20,303 nucleotides of DNA, from IMG/VR virus record IMGVR_UViG_3300009120_000017, positions 1 through 20,303 of that record; one strand, 5' to 3'. A program made the position numbers and the translations under genes. Below the pieces are notes generated by a model, which did not search any database, had not been told where the DNA came from, and saw only the letters and a program-made list of their open reading frames with translations. This DNA is from a virus. This document shows positions 1 through 20,303 of this stretch, one piece after another (within the stretch, counting starts at the first letter, position 1; each line of letters begins with the position of its first letter).

Positions 1-56
1 TCGTGGGCCAACCCACGCTTCCACCACAGCAAGAGTCTCTATTTATTCTTTGGATC

Positions 57-79
57 ACCGGTCTTTCCCGGTTGTCATG
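57..79. repeat. Duplicated hairpin, left copy
   Basis: The stem ACCGG/CCGGT closes the loop TCTTTC (57-72) and is followed by TGTCATG (73-79). The block from 58 recurs at 621-642 with one difference, and that difference changes the basal stem pair from A-T to G-C together with its partner, so pairing is kept. Confidence 0.6.
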
Positions 80-123
80 CCATTGCTCCCAGAGTTAGCC
101 CATAAAATAATGGACCCTAATCA

Positions 124-140
124 TTGGGAATCGAACCCAA
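124..140 (-). repeat. tRNA T-arm-like hairpin (copy 3)
   Basis: Read on the minus strand this is a 5-bp stem TTGGG/CCCAA closing the 7-base loop TTCGATT, the exact form of a tRNA T-arm. The seven bases that follow (TGATTAG) find no matching 5' acceptor strand at tRNA distance, and no anticodon arm is seen, so I do not call a tRNA. It is a T-loop module or a tRNA remnant. Confidence 0.6.
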
Positions 141-169
141 CTCCCGTCCTACCAAGCCTCGGCAAGCGA

Positions 170-186
170 GCTAGAATCGAACTAGC
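170..186 (-). repeat. tRNA T-arm-like hairpin (copy 2)
   Basis: Minus-strand stem GCTAG/CTAGC closes the loop TTCGATT. It lies 46 bases from the copy at 124, far too close for two full tRNAs of about 75 bases. The stem sequence differs from the other two copies while the loop is identical, as expected for a conserved structural module rather than a simple DNA repeat. Confidence 0.6.
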
Positions 187-205
187 ACTTCTCTTAAATC
201 ACCGG

Positions 206-222
206 CAGGGAATCGAACCCTG
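206..222 (-). repeat. tRNA T-arm-like hairpin (copy 1)
   Basis: Minus-strand stem CAGGG/CCCTG closes the loop TTCGATT; one further G-C pair on each side can extend it. It is 36 bases from the next copy at 170. A weaker relative with loop bases ATCGATT lies at about 253-259. No cloverleaf can be folded around it by eye. Confidence 0.6.
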
Positions 223-520
223 CACGAACTTGGACACCGAGTATCTAAGAATGGAATCGATTGAGATCCTATGTCTCTACGTCACGCCTTAATCAAGCAG
301 GTATCGATAGTGCTGCCTACTCAATGGTATCACCTGTTATTCCAGGCCACCGATCATCCATTCCCACCTTGTCAATTCAAGGCACGTCCTTTTCCAACTA
401 CCGTTGTTATTCGGGGTCTGCGTTCCCCTTATTCAGTTCAAGCAGTCACGTTTCTTTTGTTCTGCTCGCGTCTACCCTTCCGCCACGGTGATTTGTTTAT
501 TTTGTTTCTTGGATCAAGTA

Positions 521-597
521 ATGGGCAGGACAACCTGGACCACCCAGGAGGGTGAGAAGATAGACGAGAGAAAAGCGTTTAAACCCTGCCTGCCCAT
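521..597 (+). other. Predicted three-way-junction RNA element
   Basis: A 9-bp closing stem (521-529 ATGGGCAGG with 589-597) holds two side hairpins. The first is 534-548, CCTGG-ACCAC-CCAGG. The second has stem AGGGT 549-553 with ACCCT 583-587 and an inner stem TAGACG 561-566 with CGTTTA 576-581. The inner stem needs one G-T wobble when the plus strand is read, which becomes an A-C mismatch on the minus strand. The internal loops are purine-rich. No known class is recognised. Confidence 0.45.
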
Positions 598-619
598 TGT
601 TCTTGAATATGATATGCGG

Positions 620-642
620 GCCGGTCTTTCCCGGCTGTCATG
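620..642. repeat. Duplicated hairpin, right copy
   Basis: The stem GCCGG/CCGGC closes the loop TCTTTC (620-635), followed by TGTCATG. It matches 57-79 except for the compensatory basal pair. The two copies lie near opposite ends of the structured non-coding region, about 560 bases apart, and each is preceded at some distance by a TTGGATCA element (50-57 and 509-516). Confidence 0.6.
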
Positions 643-657
643 TAACTGGTATGAAAA

Positions 658-733
658 TTGGGTGCCTACTCTGGCTTAATAAGGAGTAGTAAACAAACGC
701 TGTCTGACTATATAAAAAATAGCAGGCACCCAA
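658..733 (+). other. 76-base three-way-junction element with 10-bp closing stem
   Basis: Bases 658-667 (TTGGGTGCCT) pair perfectly with 724-733 (AGGCACCCAA). Inside are a hairpin built on ACTC 668-671 with GAGT 684-687 and CTT 675-677 with AAG 681-683, and a second on GCTGT 699-703 with ATAGC 719-723. It ends 14 bases from the stop codon of the leftward gene at 747, so it could cap or process the 3' end of that message or begin the structured RNA. It lacks the downstream T-run of a classical terminator on either strand. Confidence 0.45.
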
Positions 734-746
734 AGTGAAAAGGAGA

Positions 747-1112
747 TTATTCAGCAAACACTGCTTCCGGATCAGCTACAGGTGCAGCAGGGGCCGGAGT
801 CGGTGCATCGTTGAACTCGATGACTTCCTGTGTATCGAAATTGTACATCTTGGCATTGGCGGTACCGAGGCCGGTAGCGATGCAGAACACGTTGTAGCCG
901 GTAGGTACTTCATCAAGCATGAACTTCTTGCCAAGTTTCTTTCCGGCCTTGGACATGATGGTAGACATATAACGTGCAGTCTTGCCTTCGTTCTTTCCCT
1001 GGACAAAGAAGGAATGAGTGACCTCCATATCCTTGAACGGATACTTGGACTGGAAGTTACGGGTGATCACTTTCTTTGCTGGCATGGGAAGGTTGGTTTG
1101 AATGGTAAGCAT
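747..1112 (-). CDS. Small basic phage protein with YPF..MEV..SFFV motif
   Basis: A 121-residue protein beginning MLTIQTNLPMPAKK, with a central motif YPFKDMEVTHSFFV near residues 29-42, a basic stretch of the form SKAGKKLGKKF, then a short predicted beta region and an Ala/Pro-rich acidic tail. Small phage proteins with PAKK followed by a YPF..MEVG.SFFV-type block are common (DUF7303-like, from memory); their function is unknown to me. The start is supported by AGGAG seven bases upstream of ATG. It is transcribed leftward, probably from the sigma70-type promoter at 1289-1317 through a leader of about 170 bases, and the message would continue into the structured region at 1-733. Family assignment is tentative; that it is a real gene is likely. 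Confidence 0.7.
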   Translation of the reverse strand: MLTIQTNLPMPAKKVITRNFQSKYPFKDMEVTHSFFVQGKNEGKTARYMSTIMSKAGKKLGKKFMLDEVPTGYNVFCIATGLGTANAKMYNFDTQEVIEFNDAPTPAPAAPVADPEAVFAE

Positions 1113-1195
1113 TGTGAAACTCCTGTGTTTGGTTGAGGTGCTGCGTGATGCAGTGTTTGTTGATGTTTGGTTTGTTGTTTGGATCAGTTGTTAAA

Positions 1196-1224
1196 CCCCC
1201 CTTCTCCACCCGAAGTAAGGGGGG
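1196..1224 (-). terminator. GC-rich hairpin in leader, terminator or attenuator candidate
   Basis: A perfect 8-bp stem, CCCCCCTT (1196-1203) with AAGGGGGG (1217-1224), and a 13-base loop. On the minus strand it is followed by only TTT. It lies between the start predicted for the promoter at 1289-1317 and the ATG at 1112, so it may be a leader structure rather than the end of the upstream message. GTTAAAC-type sequences flank it on both sides (1190-1196, 1233-1239). Confidence 0.45.
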
Positions 1225-1288
1225 AAACCCATGTTAAACCGATCATTGTCTTCCAGGGTTTTTGTTTAACTGTGTTTCATTGATGCCG

Positions 1289-1317
1289 ATAATAATGGGC
1301 TGTGTAGTTAAAGTCAA
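1289..1317 (-). promoter_or_regulatory. Sigma70-type promoter, leftward
   Basis: On the minus strand TTGACT (plus 1312-1317) is separated by exactly 17 bases from TATTAT (plus 1289-1294); each hexamer matches the sigma70 consensus at five of six positions. Transcription would begin near 1282 and run left through the hairpin at 1196-1224 into the gene at 747-1112 and probably the structured region beyond. This is the clearest host-type promoter in the window. Confidence 0.6.
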
Positions 1318-1352
1318 GCACATTAATTATACTTTTTTTCAGATTAACAAAA

Positions 1353-1646
1353 TTAATTGGTAGAGATTTGTAATTGCTGTGACATCTCAGTGATAAAAGC
1401 GGAAATGGTATCTTCCTGAGCGTCATTCCCTAAAGCCGCATAAGCGTGTTCAGTGCAGATATCTTGTTCTGCTTCCCCTCTACCCTGTTCAGCGTAAGCC
1501 TCGAACAAGGTATCAAATTCCTCATCCCAGTCTTCATCAACGTAGTTCAACTTCTGGTCTTCAATCTCAGCCAAGATAGTAGCTTCACCTACTTCTTCTA
1601 TCCGTTTAGCCACAAGCTGTTTGATCGATAGGGTTGTTGTTTCCAT
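1353..1646 (-). CDS. Small acidic hypothetical protein
   Basis: I do not recognise this protein. From the ATG at 1646 it has 97 residues, beginning METTTLSIKQL, and is strongly acidic in the middle (YVDEDWDEEFDTLFEAY), with mostly helical character. An upstream TTG at 1703 would lengthen it by 19 residues, but no ribosome site supports that start, whereas AGGAG lies about 12 bases before the ATG at 1646. It overlaps the end of the upstream leftward gene by about 40 bases in another frame, which fits translational coupling. A long AT-rich stretch with the next promoter follows its stop. It probably belongs to a small accessory operon with the gene at 1606-1884. Confidence 0.5.
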   Translation of the reverse strand: METTTLSIKQLVAKRIEEVGEATILAEIEDQKLNYVDEDWDEEFDTLFEAYAEQGRGEAEQDICTEHAYAALGNDAQEDTISAFITEMSQQLQISTN

Positions 1647-1884
1647 GAATGGAACTGTCTCCTGTGTCAGCGGTGTTTGATTTTTCAAGAGCTGCTTCCG
1701 CAACTTCTGTGTGCATACGGCGCAGCTTGATCACAATGAAAGCACTCGCTTCATCACGGGTATCCTGATCCGCCATCTCAGGAAGATCCGCTAGTTTATC
1801 GATGTGCGAATACAACTCATTGTAGTTTTGAACAATATCGGCGCAACATTTCCCCAACCCATTCTTCCATTCGGCGTAATTCAT
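1606..1884 (-). CDS. Small hypothetical protein, possibly truncated MazG-like
   Basis: A 92-residue protein starting MNYAEWKNGLGK, with GGAG five bases before ATG. Residues around 52-65 (IKLRRMHTEVAEAA) recall the helix with paired glutamates of MazG-type nucleotide pyrophosphohydrolases (pattern E..EA), preceded by a predicted helical N-terminus. The usual second acidic motif (an E..D-type helix) is absent; instead the protein ends in a low-complexity tail rich in Ser, Asn and Gly inside the coding region of the next gene. It could be a MazG-like gene that lost its 3' half, or an unrelated small protein; one motif is weak evidence. Confidence 0.5.
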   Translation of the reverse strand: MNYAEWKNGLGKCCADIVQNYNELYSHIDKLADLPEMADQDTRDEASAFIVIKLRRMHTEVAEAALEKSNTADTGDSSIHGNNNPIDQTACG

Positions 1885-1941
1885 GGTTTCTCCAAATAAT
1901 AGTTTAATTTTGCATTAACAAATACGATATTAAGCTGTAAA

Positions 1942-1958
1942 GTTAATGTCTGATTAAC
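1942..1958. promoter_or_regulatory. Inverted repeat, operator candidate
   Basis: GTTAAT and ATTAAC form a perfect 6-bp inverted repeat around a 5-base spacer. It lies in the divergent region between the leftward operon and the terminase genes, next to the larger repeat at 1962-1984, and shares the half-site GTTAATG with it. A repressor site is plausible but inferred. Confidence 0.35.
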
Positions 1959-1961
1959 CGG

Positions 1962-1984
1962 TGAACATTAAAAGTTAATGTTCA
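1962..1984. promoter_or_regulatory. 10-bp inverted repeat, operator or hairpin
   Basis: TGAACATTAA (1962-1971) and TTAATGTTCA (1975-1984) are perfectly complementary around AAG. On the plus strand a T-run follows, so it could also stop rightward transcription coming from the left. Its place in a divergent intergenic region, beside a related smaller repeat, favours a protein-binding site. On the minus strand a weak promoter (TTGATT, 18 bases, TATAGT) would start just upstream, placing this repeat at the transcript start. Confidence 0.4.
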
Positions 1985-2050
1985 TTTTTCAAGATTGGGT
2001 TACTATATACGCCCGATAGGTTAAAAATCAATTACTATTTATGTACGTGT

Positions 2051-2079
2051 TCACCTCCTATAATTTAACTATATGATAA
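2051..2079 (+). promoter_or_regulatory. Divergent-region motif, candidate promoter of terminase operon
   Basis: TCACCTCCT (2051-2059) is followed by TATAAT (2059-2064) and TATGATAA (2072-2079). The next gene starts at 2084 with no ribosome site, so a start from TATGAT would give a leaderless message. CCTCCTAT and TATGATAA recur together before the portal gene at 10426-10447. There is no good -35 box, so a phage-specific promoter or activator is possible. Confidence 0.35.
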
Positions 2080-2083
2080 TACT

Positions 2084-2833
2084 ATGTTAACTCTCGATCA
2101 ATTCAGACAGGCATTGCCTGAGCAAATGGCTCCATCTGCATCACAAGAATTAGTAGACATTATTAATTCCGCGTTAAAAGATCAGGAAGCTATGGAAATT
2201 TTTAAGGAAAACTTATTGAGTTATACCCATGTGCTGCAACAAGGGAAGTTCACATTAACTAACTACATAAATGCAGTTAAATATGTAGGCTTTAAAGTTA
2301 TGGGCTTGACCAACAAAGAAGCGTACATGAGAACTTTTCCTGATAAGTATCCTCAGTTTATCGCTAATGGTGTATCTGAAAAAGATATAGCTAGTTATGT
2401 CACCGCATATAACAAGAGTAAGTTAGTCAACCTAATTTATGCTCAGACGCAGATACCTACTCATATACTCAATGCACCCTTATTTCAGAAAGCAATCAAT
2501 GTGCAAGCTGATCTTATGATGAATGCTAAATCTGAAATGGTAAAATTCAATGCTGCAAATAGTCTTCTAACTCACCTGAAGCCGCCGGAGGCGGCAAAGA
2601 TAGAACTAGATATCTCTGTCAGTCGTAGCAATATCATCGATGATTATGAGAAGGTTATGCGTCAAATGGTGGAGAAGCAGAAGGAACTTATTGCAGCAGG
2701 AGGTGACGTTAAGCAGATTGCCAATGCCAGTATCAAGCCCTTTGCTGAAGAGATCATTGATATCACCCCTGAGCCTGTGGCTACGGCTACAATGGCTACA
2801 GCGGCTACAAAAGAAAAATCGATATTCGCATGA
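2084..2833 (+). CDS. Putative terminase small subunit
   Basis: A 249-residue, largely helical protein starting MLTLDQFRQALPEQM. It directly precedes the large terminase with a 4-base ATGA overlap at 2830-2833, the usual place and coupling of the small subunit, which recognises phage DNA and regulates the packaging motor. A region like a small helical DNA-binding fold is plausible around residues 60-120 (YINAVKYVGFKVMGLTNKEAYMRTF), and the C-terminus is rich in Ala and Thr. I cannot name a family from the sequence alone; the role is inferred mainly from position. The ATG at 2084 has no Shine-Dalgarno sequence, unlike most genes here. Confidence 0.6.
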   Translation: MLTLDQFRQALPEQMAPSASQELVDIINSALKDQEAMEIFKENLLSYTHVLQQGKFTLTNYINAVKYVGFKVMGLTNKEAYMRTFPDKYPQFIANGVSEKDIASYVTAYNKSKLVNLIYAQTQIPTHILNAPLFQKAINVQADLMMNAKSEMVKFNAANSLLTHLKPPEAAKIELDISVSRSNIIDDYEKVMRQMVEKQKELIAAGGDVKQIANASIKPFAEEIIDITPEPVATATMATAATKEKSIFA

Positions 2834-2955
2834 GCACTCGTTATATCAAAAAGCCGGTAGAAGACTGGCTTAATACATGCGACTACCAGTTCATGGGGTA
2901 CATGCCTACAGACATGGCCCTGATGTTTGGACTGATTCCATCGAGAATGGTGTGA
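2830..2955 (+). pseudogene. N-terminal fragment of the large terminase
   Basis: Starting at the ATG that overlaps the previous stop, this frame encodes 41 residues: MSTRYIKKPVEDWLN, then CDYQFMGYMPTDMALMF, then an unrelated GLIPSRMV and a stop. The first 33 or so look like the true N-terminus of the large terminase, which in its relatives precedes the ATPase core. The rest of the terminase continues in a different frame from about 2930 (at TDSIENG). The sequence between these two blocks, which should contain the Walker A loop, is not present. Confidence 0.6.
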
Positions 2956-4277
2956 AGAACCTTCGTCGGAATGTTGAGTTCCGTTACAACGAAAGTGAGT
3001 TTCTGCAGCGCCTCATACCGAACCAAAAGCTATCTGTTGGTGAGAATGGTGCCGGATATGTATCAACCGATCAGTTTGAAGAACAGACCGCTGGTGGCAG
3101 GAAATTCACTGATATCCGCCTGGAGTTCAAGAACAACCGGGGCCATACCTTTATCGTCAAAGGCTACGGTGCGAAGACTGGTGTGCGTGGTGCCAAGGAA
3201 CTTGGTCAGAGGCCCAAATTGGCCATCCTCGACGATCTGATAAGTGACCAGGATGCTGAGTCTGAAACCGTCATCAATACCATTGAGAACACCGTCTACA
3301 AGGCTGTCTCGAAAGCACTCCATCCTACTGTCCAGAAGATCATCTGGTTGGGTACTCCATTCAATGCCCGAGATCCGCTCTATAAGGCTGTGGAGTCCGG
3401 TGCATGGCAAGTGAGTGTCTACCCTATCTGCGAGAAGTTCCCGGTCCCTAGAGAGCAATTCCGGGGATCCTGGGAAGATCGCTTTCCCTATGAATACGTC
3501 AAGGAAGAATACGATGAGGCCCAAGCCCTCGGTAAACCAGAGAACTTTGATCAGGAGCTTATGCTACGAATTATGTCTGAGGAAGATCGTATAATACAAG
3601 ACAGTGAAATCCAATGGTACAAGCGAGCCAATGTACTGAACTTCAAGAGTAGATTCAATTTTTACATTACTACAGACTTTGCTACATCAGGTGATGAAGG
3701 TAATGACTACTCCGTTATCATAGTATGGGCGCTTAACAACATAGGTAATTGGTTACTGGTTGACGGTATCTGTCGTAAGCAGCTGATGAATACCAATATT
3801 GATGATCTTTTTCGTTTGGCTCAAAAGTACAATCCGCAATCAGTAGGTATTGAGGTCAGTGGGCAACAAGGTGGATTTATTCCTTGGATCCAAGACCAAA
3901 TGATGAATCGTAATATCTACTTCAACATCGCCTCAGAGAACAACTCAAATAAACTCGGTATCAAACCCAACACCAACAAAATGCAACGATTTAATGTTGT
4001 TCTTCCTTGGTTCAAGTCGAAGCAGATGTTTTTCCCGTATGAGTTAAAAGAAACACCTCTCATGCTGGAAGTTGTTAATGAATTGACCCTGGCTTGTAAG
4101 AAAGGCTTCAAGAGCAAGAACGATGACTGTGTGGATGCCATTTCTCAGCTTGGTTCAATGCAGGTATGGCGACCAAGTGAAGAGGTTACAATGCATCAAG
4201 ATGATTCGGGTGTCTGGCAATTTGAAGAGGATGCGGAAGATATTCTTTCGGTCTTGGATCATTCCTATATTGTTTAA
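2877..4277 (+). CDS. Terminase large subunit, Walker A region missing
   Basis: The motor and nuclease that packages DNA through the portal. In this 466-residue frame the first 18 residues are an out-of-frame reading of the true N-terminus; authentic sequence begins near TDSIENG. Walker B is clear (LAILDDL, residues 115-121), followed by the coupling motif IIWLGTPFN (155-163). The RNase H-like nuclease shows Asp267 in TTDFAT, Glu326 in VGIEVSG, and Asp416, Asp417 and Asp420 in KNDDCVD. No G..GKT/S loop exists in this frame or in the N-terminal fragment at 2830-2955, so part of the ATPase domain appears deleted with a frame change. As written, the ATPase would be inactive. Base composition becomes visibly more AT-rich after about 3570, within the gene. 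Confidence 0.85.
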   Translation: MRLPVHGVHAYRHGPDVWTDSIENGVKNLRRNVEFRYNESEFLQRLIPNQKLSVGENGAGYVSTDQFEEQTAGGRKFTDIRLEFKNNRGHTFIVKGYGAKTGVRGAKELGQRPKLAILDDLISDQDAESETVINTIENTVYKAVSKALHPTVQKIIWLGTPFNARDPLYKAVESGAWQVSVYPICEKFPVPREQFRGSWEDRFPYEYVKEEYDEAQALGKPENFDQELMLRIMSEEDRIIQDSEIQWYKRANVLNFKSRFNFYITTDFATSGDEGNDYSVIIVWALNNIGNWLLVDGICRKQLMNTNIDDLFRLAQKYNPQSVGIEVSGQQGGFIPWIQDQMMNRNIYFNIASENNSNKLGIKPNTNKMQRFNVVLPWFKSKQMFFPYELKETPLMLEVVNELTLACKKGFKSKNDDCVDAISQLGSMQVWRPSEEVTMHQDDSGVWQFEEDAEDILSVLDHSYIV

Positions 4278-4330
4278 TTCGATTATTTTTATTAATCTTG
4301 ATGAAATTAATTTTAAAGAGGTGATCCACC

Positions 4331-5044
4331 ATGATAACGCTTCAGGATATTTTTGATAATTTGACCTATGGAGATTTAAGTCATGTATCCATAGGGGGTA
4401 GTGTTGTTGGGTTTGTCGCTGATAAGGATTACCCTAAGTTAGTGTACTGTATCAATAGTGCTTTAACTGCATTACATAAACGCTTTCTTTTACGTACTGG
4501 TGAGTTAAACCTACAGCAGCATACCGATATAAGTCAGTATTACCTCCGTACTGGTTATGCACTTAGCAATACTGAAAGTGCATTAACACCTAAATATATC
4601 ATCGATTCAGTAGATAATCCCTTTACAGGGAATCTTTTTAAAATCGAACGGATCATATCCCCTAGTAGTGGAGTCATAACCTTAAATGACTCTGCTCAGT
4701 CTGCACCGGTATATACCCCAAATTTTGATACCATATTCTTCTCAGAAGTAACCGGTGAGTTGTTAAAGGTAGAGTTCAGAGCAGATCATCCTAAAATTGT
4801 TGTAACAGATGATTTTAATCCTGCGACAGTTGAGCTTCATATTTCACCGGGTATTCTCGATGCATTGTCACTTAATGTAGCAGCTAGAATTTATAGCCCT
4901 CTTGTAACAGGTGAAGCTCAAAATAGTGCAGCAAGTGCATTTATGTATCAATATGAAATGGAATGTAAACGTCTTGAAGACGAAGGTATTCCTATGATTG
5001 ATGATACATTTGATAATAGATTTGACGCGAAAGGTTTCGTATAA
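4331..5044 (+). CDS. Putative head-tail connector or virion structural protein
   Basis: A 237-residue protein beginning MITLQDIFDNLTYGDL, with an early helix containing INSALTALHKRFLLRTGEL (about residues 42-60), a beta-rich middle and a C-terminal helix ending with DDTFDNRFDAKGFV. The early segment is of the type seen in phage neck/adaptor proteins, in which small helical subunits bind the portal, but I cannot name a family with certainty. AGAGGTGAT lies six bases upstream of ATG. It sits between the terminase and the tail tip gene, in an operon spaced by 10 to 50 bases, which supports a neck or tail-completion role. Confidence 0.5.
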   Translation: MITLQDIFDNLTYGDLSHVSIGGSVVGFVADKDYPKLVYCINSALTALHKRFLLRTGELNLQQHTDISQYYLRTGYALSNTESALTPKYIIDSVDNPFTGNLFKIERIISPSSGVITLNDSAQSAPVYTPNFDTIFFSEVTGELLKVEFRADHPKIVVTDDFNPATVELHISPGILDALSLNVAARIYSPLVTGEAQNSAASAFMYQYEMECKRLEDEGIPMIDDTFDNRFDAKGFV

Positions 5045-5054
5045 GGAGATACCC

Positions 5055-5429
5055 ATGGTACCAGGTGTATATAATATTACCATCCAAAGAGGTGGCACAT
5101 TCCATATCGAACTAACAGGTACGGATAATGTAGGAGCACTCATACCGTTCGGTAGTCTGTATGACTCGGCTCTGATGTACATACAGCGAGCATGGTTGAA
5201 TGCTGCTGATGCTATGCCTGAAGAACCGTTGTTTACCTTATCTACGGCTGACGGATCTATCACCATGGAAGATACGGTTATTACTTTGCATCTGGCTGCT
5301 TCAGTGACCCGAACACTACCTTTTGTAAGTGGTGTCTACAGCCTCAAGCTCATCGCTGATGGAACTGAAACTATCGAGGATGTACTGGTAAAAGGCACTG
5401 TAACCGTTGAAAATGGGCCTACGCCATGA
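5055..5429 (+). CDS. Small beta-rich virion protein
   Basis: A 124-residue protein starting MVPGVYNITIQRGGTF. The ATG at 5055 is chosen because AAGGAGAT precedes it; the frame is open to an earlier ATG at 4998 lying inside the previous gene without a ribosome site. The pattern of an opening strand (NITIQRGGTFHIEL), a loop, and paired strands ending in DVLVKGTVTVE is typical of small immunoglobulin-like or beta-sandwich proteins encoded just before phage tail fibre genes. The stop overlaps the next start as ATGA. Its function is inferred to be tail-tip accessory; no catalytic feature is seen. Confidence 0.5.
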   Translation: MVPGVYNITIQRGGTFHIELTGTDNVGALIPFGSLYDSALMYIQRAWLNAADAMPEEPLFTLSTADGSITMEDTVITLHLAASVTRTLPFVSGVYSLKLIADGTETIEDVLVKGTVTVENGPTP

Positions 5430-8182
5430 GCAAGATGACTTCTGTGAATGTTGCCCTCGATCCGATAATTCTCCGGATTGACGACTATTCATCCCCAACG
5501 ACAACTATCGTTAATGAACCGACGCGGGTAATCGTCAAGGGTGGCACCAAACCGATAGTTAACGTCTATTTAGGGGGTATCCGAGGTATTGAGTATCTAC
5601 CCGGTGTACCTGGGCCTAAAGGCGATAAGGGTGATTCTGGGGATGGTTCTGGGATCGGCACTACTGCCGAAGTGCTTTCATTATTGGATCACGCTATTGA
5701 TTTCCAACATTTGGATTCTGATGTCAATGCAATGCTGTCCCGGCTTGATGTCAATCTTGATAGGACAATGGTTGAGCTAAACATTGCAGAATTACACATA
5801 GATACTCTATACAGCTACATTACAGGAGTTAATGGTGATATTAATGCTATTCAGCTTGATTTATCGCTGCATAATCAAAGAATAAATAATGCTGAAAATA
5901 CTATTACTAATAACTATATAACTTTATCTGATGCGATACTTTTACAATCAGAAACGCTAAATGAGTTAACTGGCGAACTGTACACTACAAAAATTAAACT
6001 TGATCAAGAAATTTTATTACAAGCACAACACTATGATGCTTTAACAGGTAATATCAACACTACAAGTATTACCCTAAATGATGCTATAACTCTGCAAGCT
6101 GAACGTATTGACAATGTTGAAGGTACGATTGATGCAGCTGTACTCCTTATTGATGCTAATGAAATACGCTTATCTGTAACTGAAACATCGTTAAATACTT
6201 ATGGTAATTATATTACAGCTCAGCAAACTATGCTGGCTAATCAGTGGAATGTAAAAATTGAAGAATATGCTGCTGGTCAGTATTGTGTAGCTGGTGTTGG
6301 ACTCATCGTTAACAGATATTGGGCAGAAGACGAACTATATGATGAAGATGAAAATGTATACCATTTAGGTGAAGTATACAAAGCCCTGTTACCGCATACT
6401 GCTAGTACAGCTAATGCTCCACCTAATGTTACATATTGGGAATTAATTCCTAATGGAGCAAAGTCTGAATTTGGTGTTTACGCTGATAAATTTTTTATTC
6501 AAACCAGTACCGGTAATCGTTTAATGCCATTTGTGGTTACTGAAGATGAAGTAACCATTAACACAACTTTGGTCATTAGAGGTTTAGATGATGCAGGTGT
6601 TAGTGAAGCGATAGATAATTTTAATGCCAGCAATGATAGAAATGCATCTGCTATAACTAACCCTACAATTGTCACTAATGGTAATGCTGTTGACCATAGT
6701 ATAAATACTGATGGTTCATGTGACATAAGTTTTGAATGGTTGTGGGGTGGTAATGAAGCAGATATCGATGGATTCATTATTTACATTTATGCATCCACTT
6801 CTTCCTCTACTTATAGCTTTGGTTCATCTCCTGCAAATGAGCAGGGTTTTTATATTCCTGCAAGTAAAAGAGCATTCATATATTATGGTGCTGCCGCTAA
6901 TCAATACTATACTTTTGGTGTACAGGCTTATCGCAGAGTTGACACTGATATTAATGCCAACGGTATTATCAAGTCAACTTTGGTTAAGCCTTCTCTAGCT
7001 GCAGAGAACCCGTATAGGCCAAGTAGTTCTGTAGCCTTTGCTGGTAATGTTACTGGTACCATAGATGGTGTATCTGCTGCCACAGTACAGAGTAATGCTG
7101 CAGATGCTATGGCTGCCGTTACTGCTATTGAAGCTGATGGTGTATTCTCAATAGCAGAAAAACGGGCATGGCAAACGGATTGGCCTGGTATGGAAGCATA
7201 CTATAATAGCATACGCTTAGCCGCAGTAGCAGAAGGTGTAAGTACAACTGATTTAGTTGCTGCTAGATCCACTATTTCCGGTGATAAAATCTATACCGGT
7301 ACTATTCAAGCTACTTCCATAAAAACAGCTGCATCTGGAAAACGTATTGAAATATCTGCTTCAGAGAACACTCTTAAAGCCTATAACTCAAGCGGTTCAT
7401 TGATTGCTGGATTTGGTGATAGTAACGGTGCAGGATCAGGGTGTATAGCTGCAATAGGTACGACCGTCAATGCTATTTGGGGTCAGTGTTCAGGGGTACA
7501 TGCTATATATGGTAGGAGCACTGCTACAGCAGGTAATGGTAATGGAGTTGTTGGGTCATGTTCAGCAGCAGGTAATGCTGGTACTGGTGGTATTAATGAA
7601 GCCACAGGGTCAGCTGGTTTGCTTGGGTATAATACCTGGGATGTTTATGCCTATGGTTCAGGTACCGATTATGGTCCATTTACCGGAGGACATGATGCAT
7701 TAATACTCAGAGGTATACAACCTATTCTTGGTTCAATTGTATGTGATGTTCAGTGCATCTATACCAGAGGTATTAGCAATACCATCTTTGAGGTAGAAGT
7801 AAGCCAAGGTTTAAATGCTCGTCCTATTGGAGTCATAGCCAATTCGCCTCAACGATTGACCATACTTAATGCACCTGCTGCTTTATCTAATGGTTTGAAC
7901 AATGAAGGATATCTTGAACCTATTGATGAGCTGTGGGATATAGCTCAGATTTACGATCTTTGTCAGATCAATGCTCTCGGTGAAGGTCAAGTCTTAGTAT
8001 GTGGTGAAAACGGTAATATGATTAATGGTGATTTAATTTGCTGTAGTTCATTACCAGGTATAGGTATGAAACAACAGGATGATATTGTCAGGAATATCAC
8101 TGTAGCTAAGATAAGAGGCAATGTTACCTTCAGTGAATCTACCGAAGTCAAATTAGTTCCCTGTATTTATTTATGTGGATAA
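5426..8182 (+). CDS. Tail tip / fibre protein (918 residues)
   Basis: The receptor-side tail protein. Residues about 60-72 carry collagen-like Gly-X-Y triplets (GVPGPKGDKGDSG). A long, AT-rich region with repeated ITLSDAI/LQAE-type heptads (about 110-290) should form trimeric coiled coil. Near residue 347, SEFGVYADKFFIQ resembles the segment common in lambda J-like host-specificity proteins. A fibronectin-like stretch follows at about 430-540, then a Gly/Ala-rich segment (about 680-750) of repeated GV.G turns. The last 165 residues, from FTGGHDALI to CIYLCG, form a conserved terminal domain with NALGEGQVLVCGENG and GDLICCSSLPGIGMKQ, which I recall from other phage tail proteins; it probably folds or caps the trimer. 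It is not an S74-type chaperone, since no such catalytic motif is visible. Confidence 0.8.
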   Translation: MSKMTSVNVALDPIILRIDDYSSPTTTIVNEPTRVIVKGGTKPIVNVYLGGIRGIEYLPGVPGPKGDKGDSGDGSGIGTTAEVLSLLDHAIDFQHLDSDVNAMLSRLDVNLDRTMVELNIAELHIDTLYSYITGVNGDINAIQLDLSLHNQRINNAENTITNNYITLSDAILLQSETLNELTGELYTTKIKLDQEILLQAQHYDALTGNINTTSITLNDAITLQAERIDNVEGTIDAAVLLIDANEIRLSVTETSLNTYGNYITAQQTMLANQWNVKIEEYAAGQYCVAGVGLIVNRYWAEDELYDEDENVYHLGEVYKALLPHTASTANAPPNVTYWELIPNGAKSEFGVYADKFFIQTSTGNRLMPFVVTEDEVTINTTLVIRGLDDAGVSEAIDNFNASNDRNASAITNPTIVTNGNAVDHSINTDGSCDISFEWLWGGNEADIDGFIIYIYASTSSSTYSFGSSPANEQGFYIPASKRAFIYYGAAANQYYTFGVQAYRRVDTDINANGIIKSTLVKPSLAAENPYRPSSSVAFAGNVTGTIDGVSAATVQSNAADAMAAVTAIEADGVFSIAEKRAWQTDWPGMEAYYNSIRLAAVAEGVSTTDLVAARSTISGDKIYTGTIQATSIKTAASGKRIEISASENTLKAYNSSGSLIAGFGDSNGAGSGCIAAIGTTVNAIWGQCSGVHAIYGRSTATAGNGNGVVGSCSAAGNAGTGGINEATGSAGLLGYNTWDVYAYGSGTDYGPFTGGHDALILRGIQPILGSIVCDVQCIYTRGISNTIFEVEVSQGLNARPIGVIANSPQRLTILNAPAALSNGLNNEGYLEPIDELWDIAQIYDLCQINALGEGQVLVCGENGNMINGDLICCSSLPGIGMKQQDDIVRNITVAKIRGNVTFSESTEVKLVPCIYLCG

Positions 8183-16470: not shown

Positions 16471-16605
16471 ATGCCCGTACCATTAGTACCCCTAACCATT
16501 GGTGAAGGTACTGTTGATAACCTGAATATGGACGATCTTACCACCGGTACCTTAGATGGTGCCGGTGCGTTTGATGTCATCATGAAGGCAGTCTTGAAGG
16601 TATGA
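16471..16605 (+). pseudogene. N-terminal fragment of a broken coiled-coil virion gene
   Basis: The ATG at 16471 has AAGGAGT nine bases before it, and this frame encodes 44 residues, starting MPVPLVPLTIGEGTVDNLNM and with GAGAFDVIMKAV near its end. The opening (short Pro/Leu leader, then a G..FD..MK helix) is the style of a family of podovirus virion proteins that continue into long Ala/Gln coiled coils. Here the frame stops at 16603, and the coiled-coil part follows in another frame (from the block EGSLEGMMLKQKEF, about 16584 onward). I infer a deletion of some tens of bases that shifted the frame. Confidence 0.5.
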
Positions 16606-19238
16606 TGCTTAAGCAGAAAGAATTTACCACTGCTCAAATAGCAGAGATGAACTCTCGGGATGATTTGATCAGTGCTCAGGTATTGCATACCAATGCCCAG
16701 ACAGCATTAGCCGAAGCTCAGGCTGATTTGACTGCTGCTGAGCAAAGTAAGATTGTTCCATTGAATTTGTTGGTAGCAGCACAGACAGCGAATGAAGAAG
16801 CTAAGACAGCTTTAACTGAAGCTGAAATAGATGCAATGCCTACCAAACTGATACTGCTACAAGCTCAGGCTGACGCTGAAACAGCTAAGGCTGTTTTGTA
16901 CCCTGCTCAGGTTACTTTGACCGAAGCACAGGCAGCAGCAGAAACGGCAAAAACGAATACCCTCATACCAAAGCAAGCTACGTTATTGGATAAACAAGCT
17001 GCTAATACTGATGCTCAAACAGATCATACAGCTGCACAAACTGCAGTCGTACCGATCCTTTTTTGTAGGTGCATCATGGGACTATTTGATAGTGAGACAA
17101 AAATTACGGTATCTGCAGTTACTTTTAATCTTATCGATAAGGCTCCTAATCGTATGAGAGAGGCAGCAGCATACGCACTCATATCAGGGAATAATCTTGT
17201 TGAAACAGTAATGTCATCTATGGTTAACGGTTTTGCATATCAAGCTAAACAAGCTTATGATTATGCAAATGAACACTATACCCTTGGTTTACCTAATGGT
17301 GAAATACAAGGTTTACCTATTGCAGATCATGCAGCAGTTAAAGCAGCAATAGATGCTGATTACCCTGGTGCTGATTCAGCTGTCATTTATGCATTCATTG
17401 GTCACTTATCGGGAGAAGCTGCATTAGTAGAATGGTTACGTAATAACAGAGGTTATAAACTTGGATCATCTACTATAACAGTACATCCTTTTACCTTATA
17501 TAGTCCTCAGCATGGTAAACTACGTATAGATAGAACAGAATACCTTAGTGAAACGCATGAGATAAAAATAATATATAAAGAATACTATAATCTTGTCTCT
17601 CATTATGCAGAACATTATGACATAGTTCCTGCTCCTGTAGGTTTAGTATTAGGTGATCTTTATTGTTGTGCAGCATTCAAATTATTCAATTCAAGTTTAG
17701 GTACATATTCAGAGGAAGAATACTACTGGTTCTATCGCTTAGCAGATAAAACACATGAAGGTATAACCTATGATCCGGTTGGATTTGGTGCTTACGCTTA
17801 TATGCCTATTGTACCATTGCGGAGAGATAACATTGATTTGACTGATGCAAGTAGATCTAGTACGGAATTATTTACCACAAGTAAAAAGCTACTTAAAAAA
17901 ATGTCATTAGATTTTGAAAATCTTGGTGATAAGATAAATGAAAATCCTAGTGTTGCTCAAATAGACCATGCGTATGTAATGTTTGGTATTGATATAATGA
18001 CAGATAAACCAGCAAGCTTACGCTACTTGTGTGAGTATTTTGATTATTTAAGTGATGTAGATATTTTCGATAAAAATGACACGGCTAATTTTTGGCAGGA
18101 ATATACCAAAGTAAAAAGAAACACCAATACATTTATATTTAAGAGACTTGATGCAGAAATACCTAGAATCGTCATTCAAGACTATGGTTTAGATATTAGT
18201 ATTACTTACGGTCATATTACTTCAGTTATTTACCAAGGATCTATTGGACCTGTAGGTACATGCACTAGACAGGTAATTTTAGACAAGGTTAAATTAAGCA
18301 CTTTTATGTTTGCAGACAGATCACAATTAATACTTAGACAGCAGATAAATGAACATCAATATAGATGTATAACTGTATACATACCAAGACATGTTAATAG
18401 TATATATCAAGGTCATGGTATAATGAGTACATTATACGCAAGCAGCACTGATCCTGAAAATGAAAGTTTTATCATACCTCTTCATTATGGTATTGCTAAA
18501 GCATTACCTCTAAAAGAAAGAAATGAACTGTACTATGATTCATGTCGATTAGTATTAAACTCTTATGAGGTACAGAAAATAAGATGGTATCAAAAGAATT
18601 TTTTCAAAGGAATATTTGTATTTATTGCAGCAGTTATAGCAGCTTGGTCAGGACAAGGTTGGCTTGTTAAACTTGGCATGGCTATAGGTGCAGGTGCCAT
18701 GGCAGTTGCAATGTTTTTACTGGAATCTATTATTATTTCTGTAGTCATAAGTATAGCAGCTAAGCTTTTTGTTAGAATGGTAGGTGGTGAGCTTGCTATA
18801 ATCATTGGTATAGTTGTTACTATTTACGCTATATCCCGAGGTAATATGGGTTCATTTCAATTTTTAGGACAAACCATACCTACAGCACAAAGCTTAATAC
18901 AAATGAGTTCAGCACTCATATCAGGTAGTCAAGATTGGATAAACTCTGAACTACAAACAGTACAGGAAGAATCGCAACAATTCGCCAAAGAAGCTGAAGA
19001 GAAAATAGACATGCTTGAAGAGGCTCAAGCTCTCTTAGAAATGGACATAAAATTGAGTCCTATGGCGATGTTAGCTACCACTCAGCCATCTACTCAATTG
19101 GATCGTACCCTCATTGAGACACCTGACGAGTTTTTTAATCGAACCATCCATGCAGGAAATATCGGAGTATTAACCTTAGATGTTGTTGAGAATTATGCTA
19201 AGATAATGTTAAATTTACCTGAAGTACGTTATGTTTAA
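16602..19238 (+). CDS. Fused ORF: coiled-coil part plus large membrane-segment virion protein
   Basis: An 878-residue frame that appears to join two proteins. Residues 1-158 are a long Ala/Gln/Thr-rich coiled coil (repeated AQA.LT.AQ-type units). Residue 159 is Met of a second likely start, at 17076 (MGLFDSETKITVS), preceded by TAGGTG at ribosome-site spacing; many podoviruses have a separate gene starting MGLFGS-like at this place. From there the 720-residue protein has a mostly beta/alpha body, a tract of three or four hydrophobic segments (about 508-590 of the second part, GIFVFIAAVIAAW through IIIGIVVTIYAI), then a coiled C-terminus. Such segments suggest a protein injected into, or crossing, the host membrane. 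It is visibly richer in AT than the genes around it. Whether one or two proteins are made is unknown. Confidence 0.65.
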   Translation: MMLKQKEFTTAQIAEMNSRDDLISAQVLHTNAQTALAEAQADLTAAEQSKIVPLNLLVAAQTANEEAKTALTEAEIDAMPTKLILLQAQADAETAKAVLYPAQVTLTEAQAAAETAKTNTLIPKQATLLDKQAANTDAQTDHTAAQTAVVPILFCRCIMGLFDSETKITVSAVTFNLIDKAPNRMREAAAYALISGNNLVETVMSSMVNGFAYQAKQAYDYANEHYTLGLPNGEIQGLPIADHAAVKAAIDADYPGADSAVIYAFIGHLSGEAALVEWLRNNRGYKLGSSTITVHPFTLYSPQHGKLRIDRTEYLSETHEIKIIYKEYYNLVSHYAEHYDIVPAPVGLVLGDLYCCAAFKLFNSSLGTYSEEEYYWFYRLADKTHEGITYDPVGFGAYAYMPIVPLRRDNIDLTDASRSSTELFTTSKKLLKKMSLDFENLGDKINENPSVAQIDHAYVMFGIDIMTDKPASLRYLCEYFDYLSDVDIFDKNDTANFWQEYTKVKRNTNTFIFKRLDAEIPRIVIQDYGLDISITYGHITSVIYQGSIGPVGTCTRQVILDKVKLSTFMFADRSQLILRQQINEHQYRCITVYIPRHVNSIYQGHGIMSTLYASSTDPENESFIIPLHYGIAKALPLKERNELYYDSCRLVLNSYEVQKIRWYQKNFFKGIFVFIAAVIAAWSGQGWLVKLGMAIGAGAMAVAMFLLESIIISVVISIAAKLFVRMVGGELAIIIGIVVTIYAISRGNMGSFQFLGQTIPTAQSLIQMSSALISGSQDWINSELQTVQEESQQFAKEAEEKIDMLEEAQALLEMDIKLSPMAMLATTQPSTQLDRTLIETPDEFFNRTIHAGNIGVLTLDVVENYAKIMLNLPEVRYV
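17065..17078 (+). promoter_or_regulatory. Internal ribosome site for the MGLF start
   Basis: TAGGTG (17066-17071) lies four bases before ATG at 17076. It follows a run of six T at 17059-17064. One additional T in this run would bring a TAG stop into frame for the upstream coiled-coil part, separating the two proteins. The site therefore argues that 17076 is a true start. Confidence 0.5.
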
Positions 19239-19765: not shown

Positions 19766-20303
19766 ATGGCCCCGATAACCTGGAAGAATATCAATGCCCC
19801 TGATTTCAGGGACTCTATTTTAGCCCTTGGTTCAGCAGGTACTTCCTTCGATAACGCTGCTGAAGGTATCAATAAACTCTTCGCAGAGAACCAGCGTATC
19901 GGGAATACCAACTGGGACAATCAAGCTCGTATCAACACTGAGGATGCTATTGCTCAACTGCGTTCTTTAGCGACATTGCCTGAGTATTACCAGCAGAAAG
20001 ACAACTTTGATATGGCTGGCCTCAGACCGCAATACGGTGCTCAGATCAACGCTGAAGCCATTCAAGCGGCCCTCGGTAAGCGACTGGCTGAATTGAATGA
20101 AGGTGCTTCTCTGCAAGCCGCTCAGCTTGGCCGGGATGTCACTGCTCAAACTGGCTCATTGGCTCAAGGTACGCAAGCAGCTACAGAAGCCATTCAAGAC
20201 CTTGGTATGCGTGATCCTAAAGCTGTACAGGCTGCTTTAGCTCTGCATGGCCAGATGGCCAAGGGACAAGAGCAAGGTATCACTGAAGCCCAGGATCAGC
20301 AAC
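19766..20303 (+). CDS. Internal virion protein, partial (3' end beyond window)
   Basis: Starts with ATG at 19766 after AAGGAGATTTACC and is open to the end of the window, 179 codons without a stop. It begins MAPITWKNINAPDFRDS and has a long helical, Gln/Ala-rich run (INAEAIQAALGKRLAEL and onward), as do large ejection proteins of podoviruses, which form coiled tubes in the cell envelope. Only the first part is seen, so size and any enzymatic domain (such as a lytic transglycosylase) cannot be judged. Confidence 0.65.
   Translation, partial: MAPITWKNINAPDFRDSILALGSAGTSFDNAAEGINKLFAENQRIGNTNWDNQARINTEDAIAQLRSLATLPEYYQQKDNFDMAGLRPQYGAQINAEAIQAALGKRLAELNEGASLQAAQLGRDVTAQTGSLAQGTQAATEAIQDLGMRDPKAVQAALALHGQMAKGQEQGITEAQDQQ

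What the first reader, a model, noticed from the sequence alone, without database searches (positions are those of the whole stretch)
2830..4277. Large terminase without a Walker A loop, split between two frames
The N-terminus (MSTRYIKKPVEDWLN, 2830 onward) and the Walker B/nuclease part (TDSIENG, from about 2930) are in different frames and directly joined, with no room for a P-loop. The rest of the protein is intact, with Walker B LAILDDL and the nuclease Asp and Glu residues. Either the phage is defective, or the missing part is supplied elsewhere (a split terminase), or the join is an assembly fault. A split packaging motor would be new.
Basis: partly seen in the sequence, partly recalled or inferred. 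Interest (0 to 1): 0.75.

Follow-up and report, generated by a model that had tools for sequence, protein, structure and literature searches.

The report
Misassembled terminase gene in N4-like phage
The phage DNA-packaging motor gene here lacks its ATP-binding loop because about 220 bases are missing from this assembled fragment, which has three more gaps of nearly the same size, so it looks like an assembly error in a mix of related phages and not a new kind of split motor.

Summary
TerL is broken at window 2929/2930: an N-terminal piece (2830-2928) and the Walker B/nuclease piece (from about 2930) lie in different frames with no P-loop between. The phage is N4-like (Schitoviridae). All 75 related TerL frames collected carry a P-loop (xRG-x-[AG]-KT[TS]), and the closest relative (L001/L016, 94% identical over the shared part) is intact. 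Against it the window lacks exactly 220 nt, which explains both the missing loop and the frame change. The window lacks three more blocks of near-identical size, at 7268 (225 nt), 16592 (238 nt) and 17056 (245 nt); every other gap is at most 42 nt. Two of these wreck a conserved virion protein gene and half a terminator. L016 shows reciprocal losses (61 and 142 nt) in the same gene, each bounded by a stretch 100% identical between the two contigs. Both contigs end at the same homologous base inside a 91-nt identical run. The rest of TerL is under strong purifying selection (dN/dS 0.034). Best reading: short-read misassembly of two co-occurring strains. A split motor has no support. The real curiosity is elsewhere: several relatives carry inteins inside the P-loop of this gene.

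The parts
2084..2833 (+). N4 gp69-like / small-terminase-like gene, intact
   Evidence: phrog_2109 5.9e-89, weak phrog_2538 terminase small subunit
2830..2928 (+). TerL N-terminal piece (33 aa homologous to relatives); frame then runs to a stop at 2955
   Evidence: 82% identical to residues 1-33 of L001 TerL
2929..2930 (+). Join: 220 nt present in L001 (P-loop CHRGIGKTT included) are absent; frame changes
   Evidence: alignments
2931..4277 (+). TerL remainder with Walker B and nuclease domain, intact and conserved
   Evidence: phrog_38 2.5e-82; 94% identical to L001, dN/dS 0.034
7267..7269 (+). Second join of the same kind: 225 nt absent (in frame) in a large tail-region protein (ORF 5426-8182)
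16592..16593 (+). Third join: about 238 nt absent, frameshifts the N4 gp54-like virion protein that starts at 16471
17056..17058 (+). Fourth join: 245 nt absent; fuses the end of the gp54-like gene to the next gene and removes most of a terminator hairpin present in L016
16532..16592 (+). 61-nt stretch identical to L016, bounded on the left by a loss in L016 and on the right by a loss in the window
16975..17058 (+). 84-nt stretch identical to L016, bounded in the same reciprocal way
20213..20303 (+). Last 91 nt identical to L016; both contigs end at the same homologous base

Best explanation
The window is an uncultivated N4-like (Schitoviridae) phage contig whose terminase large-subunit gene was normal in the living phage. 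A short-read assembler handling at least two co-occurring related strains joined pieces on either side of an unresolved stretch and dropped about 220-245 nt at four places, one of which holds the TerL P-loop. Shown: the 220-nt gap, the intact relatives, the three sibling gaps, the reciprocal losses in L016 and the coincident contig ends. Inferred: that both contigs come from the same or a sibling assembly, and that the loss arose in assembly and not in a real genome.
For: Closest relative intact; the gap of 220 nt = 3n+1 explains both the missing P-loop and the frame change. Gaps of 220, 225, 238 and 245 nt in one 20-kb contig, all others at most 42 nt. The gp54-like virion gene is broken in both contigs in complementary ways: the window keeps the start (phrog_2050 positions 53-80) and loses the middle; L016 lacks the start and keeps positions 60-117; 420 phage records match the L016 protein. 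Each loss abuts a 61- or 84-nt identical segment inside DNA otherwise 79-90% identical. The contigs end at the same base in a 91-nt identical run, the longest exact match between them. The fourth gap leaves only the tail of a terminator hairpin. TerL dN/dS is 0.034 at dS about 1, with no decay. Strain mixtures are a known source of branched graphs and indel or chimera errors in viral assembly (PMC11443906).
Against: No reads were available. The terminase join itself is not flanked by a long identical segment shared with L016, unlike joins 3 and 4. The window's own sample name is hidden, so shared origin with L016 is inferred. The 225-nt tail-protein gap is in frame and could by itself be natural variation.
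Confidence: 0.87

Rival explanations
1. A real, very recent deletion in a defective phage genome (or an amplification chimera in the library) that removed the P-loop and shifted the frame; the genome is packaged, if at all, with a helper's TerL.
For: Reads are not available to exclude it; a deletion by itself is an ordinary event. The remainder of TerL is intact, as a very recent event would leave it.
Against: It needs four independent losses of almost the same size in one contig, plus reciprocal losses in a second contig at the edges of identical segments.
Confidence: 0.1
2. A split packaging motor: the ATPase P-loop is supplied in trans by another gene, and the two pieces associate or are trans-spliced.
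For: Only that the missing segment is absent from this fragment, and that roughly 50 kb of an N4-like genome is not in the record.
Against: No P-loop fragment in the window. All 75 related TerL frames carry the P-loop in the same polypeptide, as intein-bearing precursors where interrupted. No intein half borders the join; the reading frame simply ends out of frame about 27 nt later. The sibling gaps elsewhere have no such rationale.
Confidence: 0.01
3. The true gene carries an intein at the P-loop (as several relatives do), and assembly failed there because strains with and without the intein coexist. This is a sub-case of the assembly explanation.
For: P-loop inteins occur in relatives L042, L073/L074 and L082 at the K|T site.
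Against: The gap ends do not coincide with the intein site, the closest relative has none, and the other three gaps are not in intein sites.
Confidence: 0.05

Closest known systems
Schitoviridae (N4-like) terminase large subunit, N4 gp68 / phrog_38
   Same: Gene order (gp69-like, TerL, gp67-like), Walker B, nuclease domain; the best cultured-phage matches are 55-59% identical to the remainder
   Different: The window copy lacks the P-loop segment (220 nt) and changes frame there
IMG/VR contig 3300009120_000007 (L001/L016)
   Same: 94% amino-acid identity over the remaining TerL, collinear over the shared length, same contig end
   Different: TerL intact (555 aa); it has its own losses elsewhere, in the gp54-like gene
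Strain-mixture misassembly of viral metagenomes
   Same: Near equal-sized joins, identical segments at breakpoints, coincident contig ends
   Different: The assembler and reads could not be inspected

Membership tests
Schitoviridae TerL (phrog_38) | Nuclease (RNase H-like) domain and Walker B | tested here: met
   phrog_38 2.5e-82; Terminase_6C 22.4 bits, just below the 22.6 cut-off; LAILDDL present
Schitoviridae TerL (phrog_38) | P-loop xRG-x-[AG]-KT[TS] between the N-terminal piece and the DS[IVM][ED]NG motif | tested here: not met
   75 of 75 related frames have it; absent in the window
Schitoviridae TerL (phrog_38) | One continuous reading frame (intein-bearing precursors included) | tested here: not met
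   Frame changes at 2929/2930
Split (two-gene) packaging motor | Separate gene encoding the P-loop with the expected flanks | tested here: not met
   None in the window; none among related loci; the rest of the genome is not held
Split-intein fractured gene | Intein N- or C-part at the break | tested here: not met
   The frame ends about 27 nt after the join with no room for an intein part
Assembly artefact | Discordant or absent read support at the join | not testable with these tools
   No reads; indirect evidence only

The most novel reading that the evidence does not exclude
A real phage genome with a TerL lacking its ATP-binding loop, complemented in trans by a separately encoded P-loop domain on the unseen part of the genome or by a co-infecting relative.
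Probability: 0.01. Interest if true: 0.8.

Novelty: not a real feature. Interest (0 to 1): 0.07.

Why it matters
A trans-complemented packaging ATPase would be new, so it matters to show that this example does not support it. The practical lesson is that metagenome contigs from strain mixtures can carry silent losses of 60-250 nt inside essential genes, visible only by comparison with a near relative. The intein-bearing P-loops of related phages are the more promising thing at this site.

Tried and rejected
Looked for the missing P-loop elsewhere in the window (six-frame tblastn and motif scan): only PhoH and spurious motifs. Looked for other viral contigs with the DNA left of the join or with a degenerate pattern for the right side: none. 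Looked for continuation contigs through the shared 3' end and the shared 61-nt segment: only the L016 contig. Considered programmed frameshifting: the two frames overlap between 2877 and 2955, but a shift could not supply the missing P-loop, and no slippery heptamer was seen by eye near the join (no systematic scan). Considered pseudogene decay: dN/dS argues against it. A structure prediction was not run, because the translated product is not believed to exist. One literature search failed on a short term; another for Schitoviridae terminase inteins found no paper.

Full report
What is there. The window is a 20,303-nt virus record with N4-like gene content: a gp69-like gene, terminase large subunit (phrog_38), gp67-like protein, portal (phrog_1216), a protein of the tape-measure family (phrog_2120), major head protein (phrog_1357) and a PhoH gene. 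Cultured relatives are Schitoviridae.

What is missing. The closest relative, IMG/VR 3300009120_000007 (L001, full contig L016), encodes an intact 555-aa TerL with the P-loop CHRGIGKTT. Aligned to it, the window is collinear on both sides and lacks 220 nt exactly at 2929/2930. 220 is 3n+1, so one loss explains both the missing P-loop and the frame change. All 75 TerL frames over 400 aa collected from IMG/VR and GenBank phages carry a P-loop of the form xRG-x-[AG]-KT[TS] at this place, and the N-terminal 112 aa including the P-loop match 469 phage records, against 481 for the remainder. The family therefore has a Walker A here.

The gap has siblings. In the whole alignment with L016 the window lacks four blocks of 220, 225, 238 and 245 nt; no other gap on either side exceeds 42 nt, except the two in L016 described next (the 238-nt value is the net difference at 16592, which one search shows as 246 because the alignment there is ambiguous). 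The block at 16592 frameshifts a conserved N4 gp54-like virion protein (phrog_2050). The block at 17056 removes the end of that gene and most of a terminator hairpin (AAGGAGGGCTTTTGCCCTCCTT followed by T's in L016), leaving only the final CCTTTTTT in the window (one search finds no terminator) and fusing the gene to its neighbour. L016 in turn lacks 61 nt (the start of the same gene) and 142 nt (a frameshift) in the same region. Two stretches of 61 and 84 nt are 100% identical between the contigs, inside DNA that is otherwise about 79-90% identical, and each is bounded on its left by a loss in L016 and on its right by a loss in the window. Phages have no obvious reason to lose complementary parts of the same virion gene at the edges of shared segments; an assembler working on two mixed strains can do so.

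The contig ends. The window's last base aligns to the last base of L016, and the final 91 nt are identical, the longest exact match between the two. Contigs of two strains ending at the same base in their longest shared run is what a de Bruijn graph gives at a branch. That both records come from one assembly is an inference, since the window's source is not told. A scan for the shared end and for the 61-nt segment found only the L016 contig in IMG/VR.

Selection. Over the remaining TerL, dN/dS between window and L016 is 0.034 at dS about 1, similar to PhoH and the gp69-like gene. The gene was functional throughout the divergence of the two strains. A real loss would have to be very recent.

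Mechanism. Most likely the phage has a normal single-chain TerL, and the join was made during assembly or scaffolding across an unresolved stretch. Shown: the gap, its size class, the intact relatives, the reciprocal losses and the coincident ends. Inferred: the assembler as cause. A recent real deletion (defective genome or amplification chimera) is the main rival, at about 0.1. A split motor has no positive evidence: no P-loop fragment in the window, none in relatives, no intein half at the join.

Side finding. In relatives L042, L073/L074 and L082 the TerL P-loop is interrupted between Lys and Thr by 333-338-residue inteins with LAGLIDADG endonuclease domains. They start with Gln, Leu or Trp, not Cys or Ser, and by eye show W (HIVW/HVVW), C (GYCI/GHCI) and T (VTHN) at places matching the class 3 WCT triplet. 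A second insertion site (GAK|TGxRG) is occupied in L032-L034, L036, L050, L051 and L059. P-loop inteins in TerL and class 3 inteins are known from mycobacteriophages (PMC5050341); my one search for Schitoviridae terminase inteins returned no paper, which covers only the held library.

Noticed in passing
L042:2115-4772, L073:4905-7577, L074, L082:2218-4884: N4-like TerL genes with LAGLIDADG inteins inserted in the P-loop between Lys and Thr; no N-terminal Cys/Ser and a W-C-T pattern like class 3 inteins.
   Followed up: partly
L032, L033, L034, L036, L050, L051, L059: A second intein site in the same TerL, at GAK|TGxRG, starting with Ala (ALSLDT... or ALALDT...) and ending RTHN.
   Followed up: partly
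window 16471-17069 and L016 3230-4114: N4 gp54-like virion protein gene broken in complementary ways in two related contigs; useful as a marker of misassembly.
   Followed up: yes
L037 about 2768-4460: TerL split over three frames in another metagenome contig, probably sequencing error.
   Followed up: no
L016 12407-15397 (counterpart of window 5426-8182): Large tail-region protein with about 150 aa (residues 394-548 of the L016 copy) 43-44% identical to YomG of Bacillus phage SPbeta; only Bacillus and Colwellia phages matched it in the GenBank phage collection, no N4-like phage.
   Followed up: no
window 19766-20303 versus upstream genes: Synonymous divergence from L016 falls from about 1 over much of the left part to 0.40 (17077-19238) and 0.17 at the right end, suggesting recombination between the two strains or mixing of reads.
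   Followed up: no
window 1-2080: Left end holds no recognised structural gene and no tRNA; one small minus-strand ORF (747-1112) weakly matches phrog_7597; two others (1353-1703, 1606-1884) have no PHROG match.
   Followed up: no
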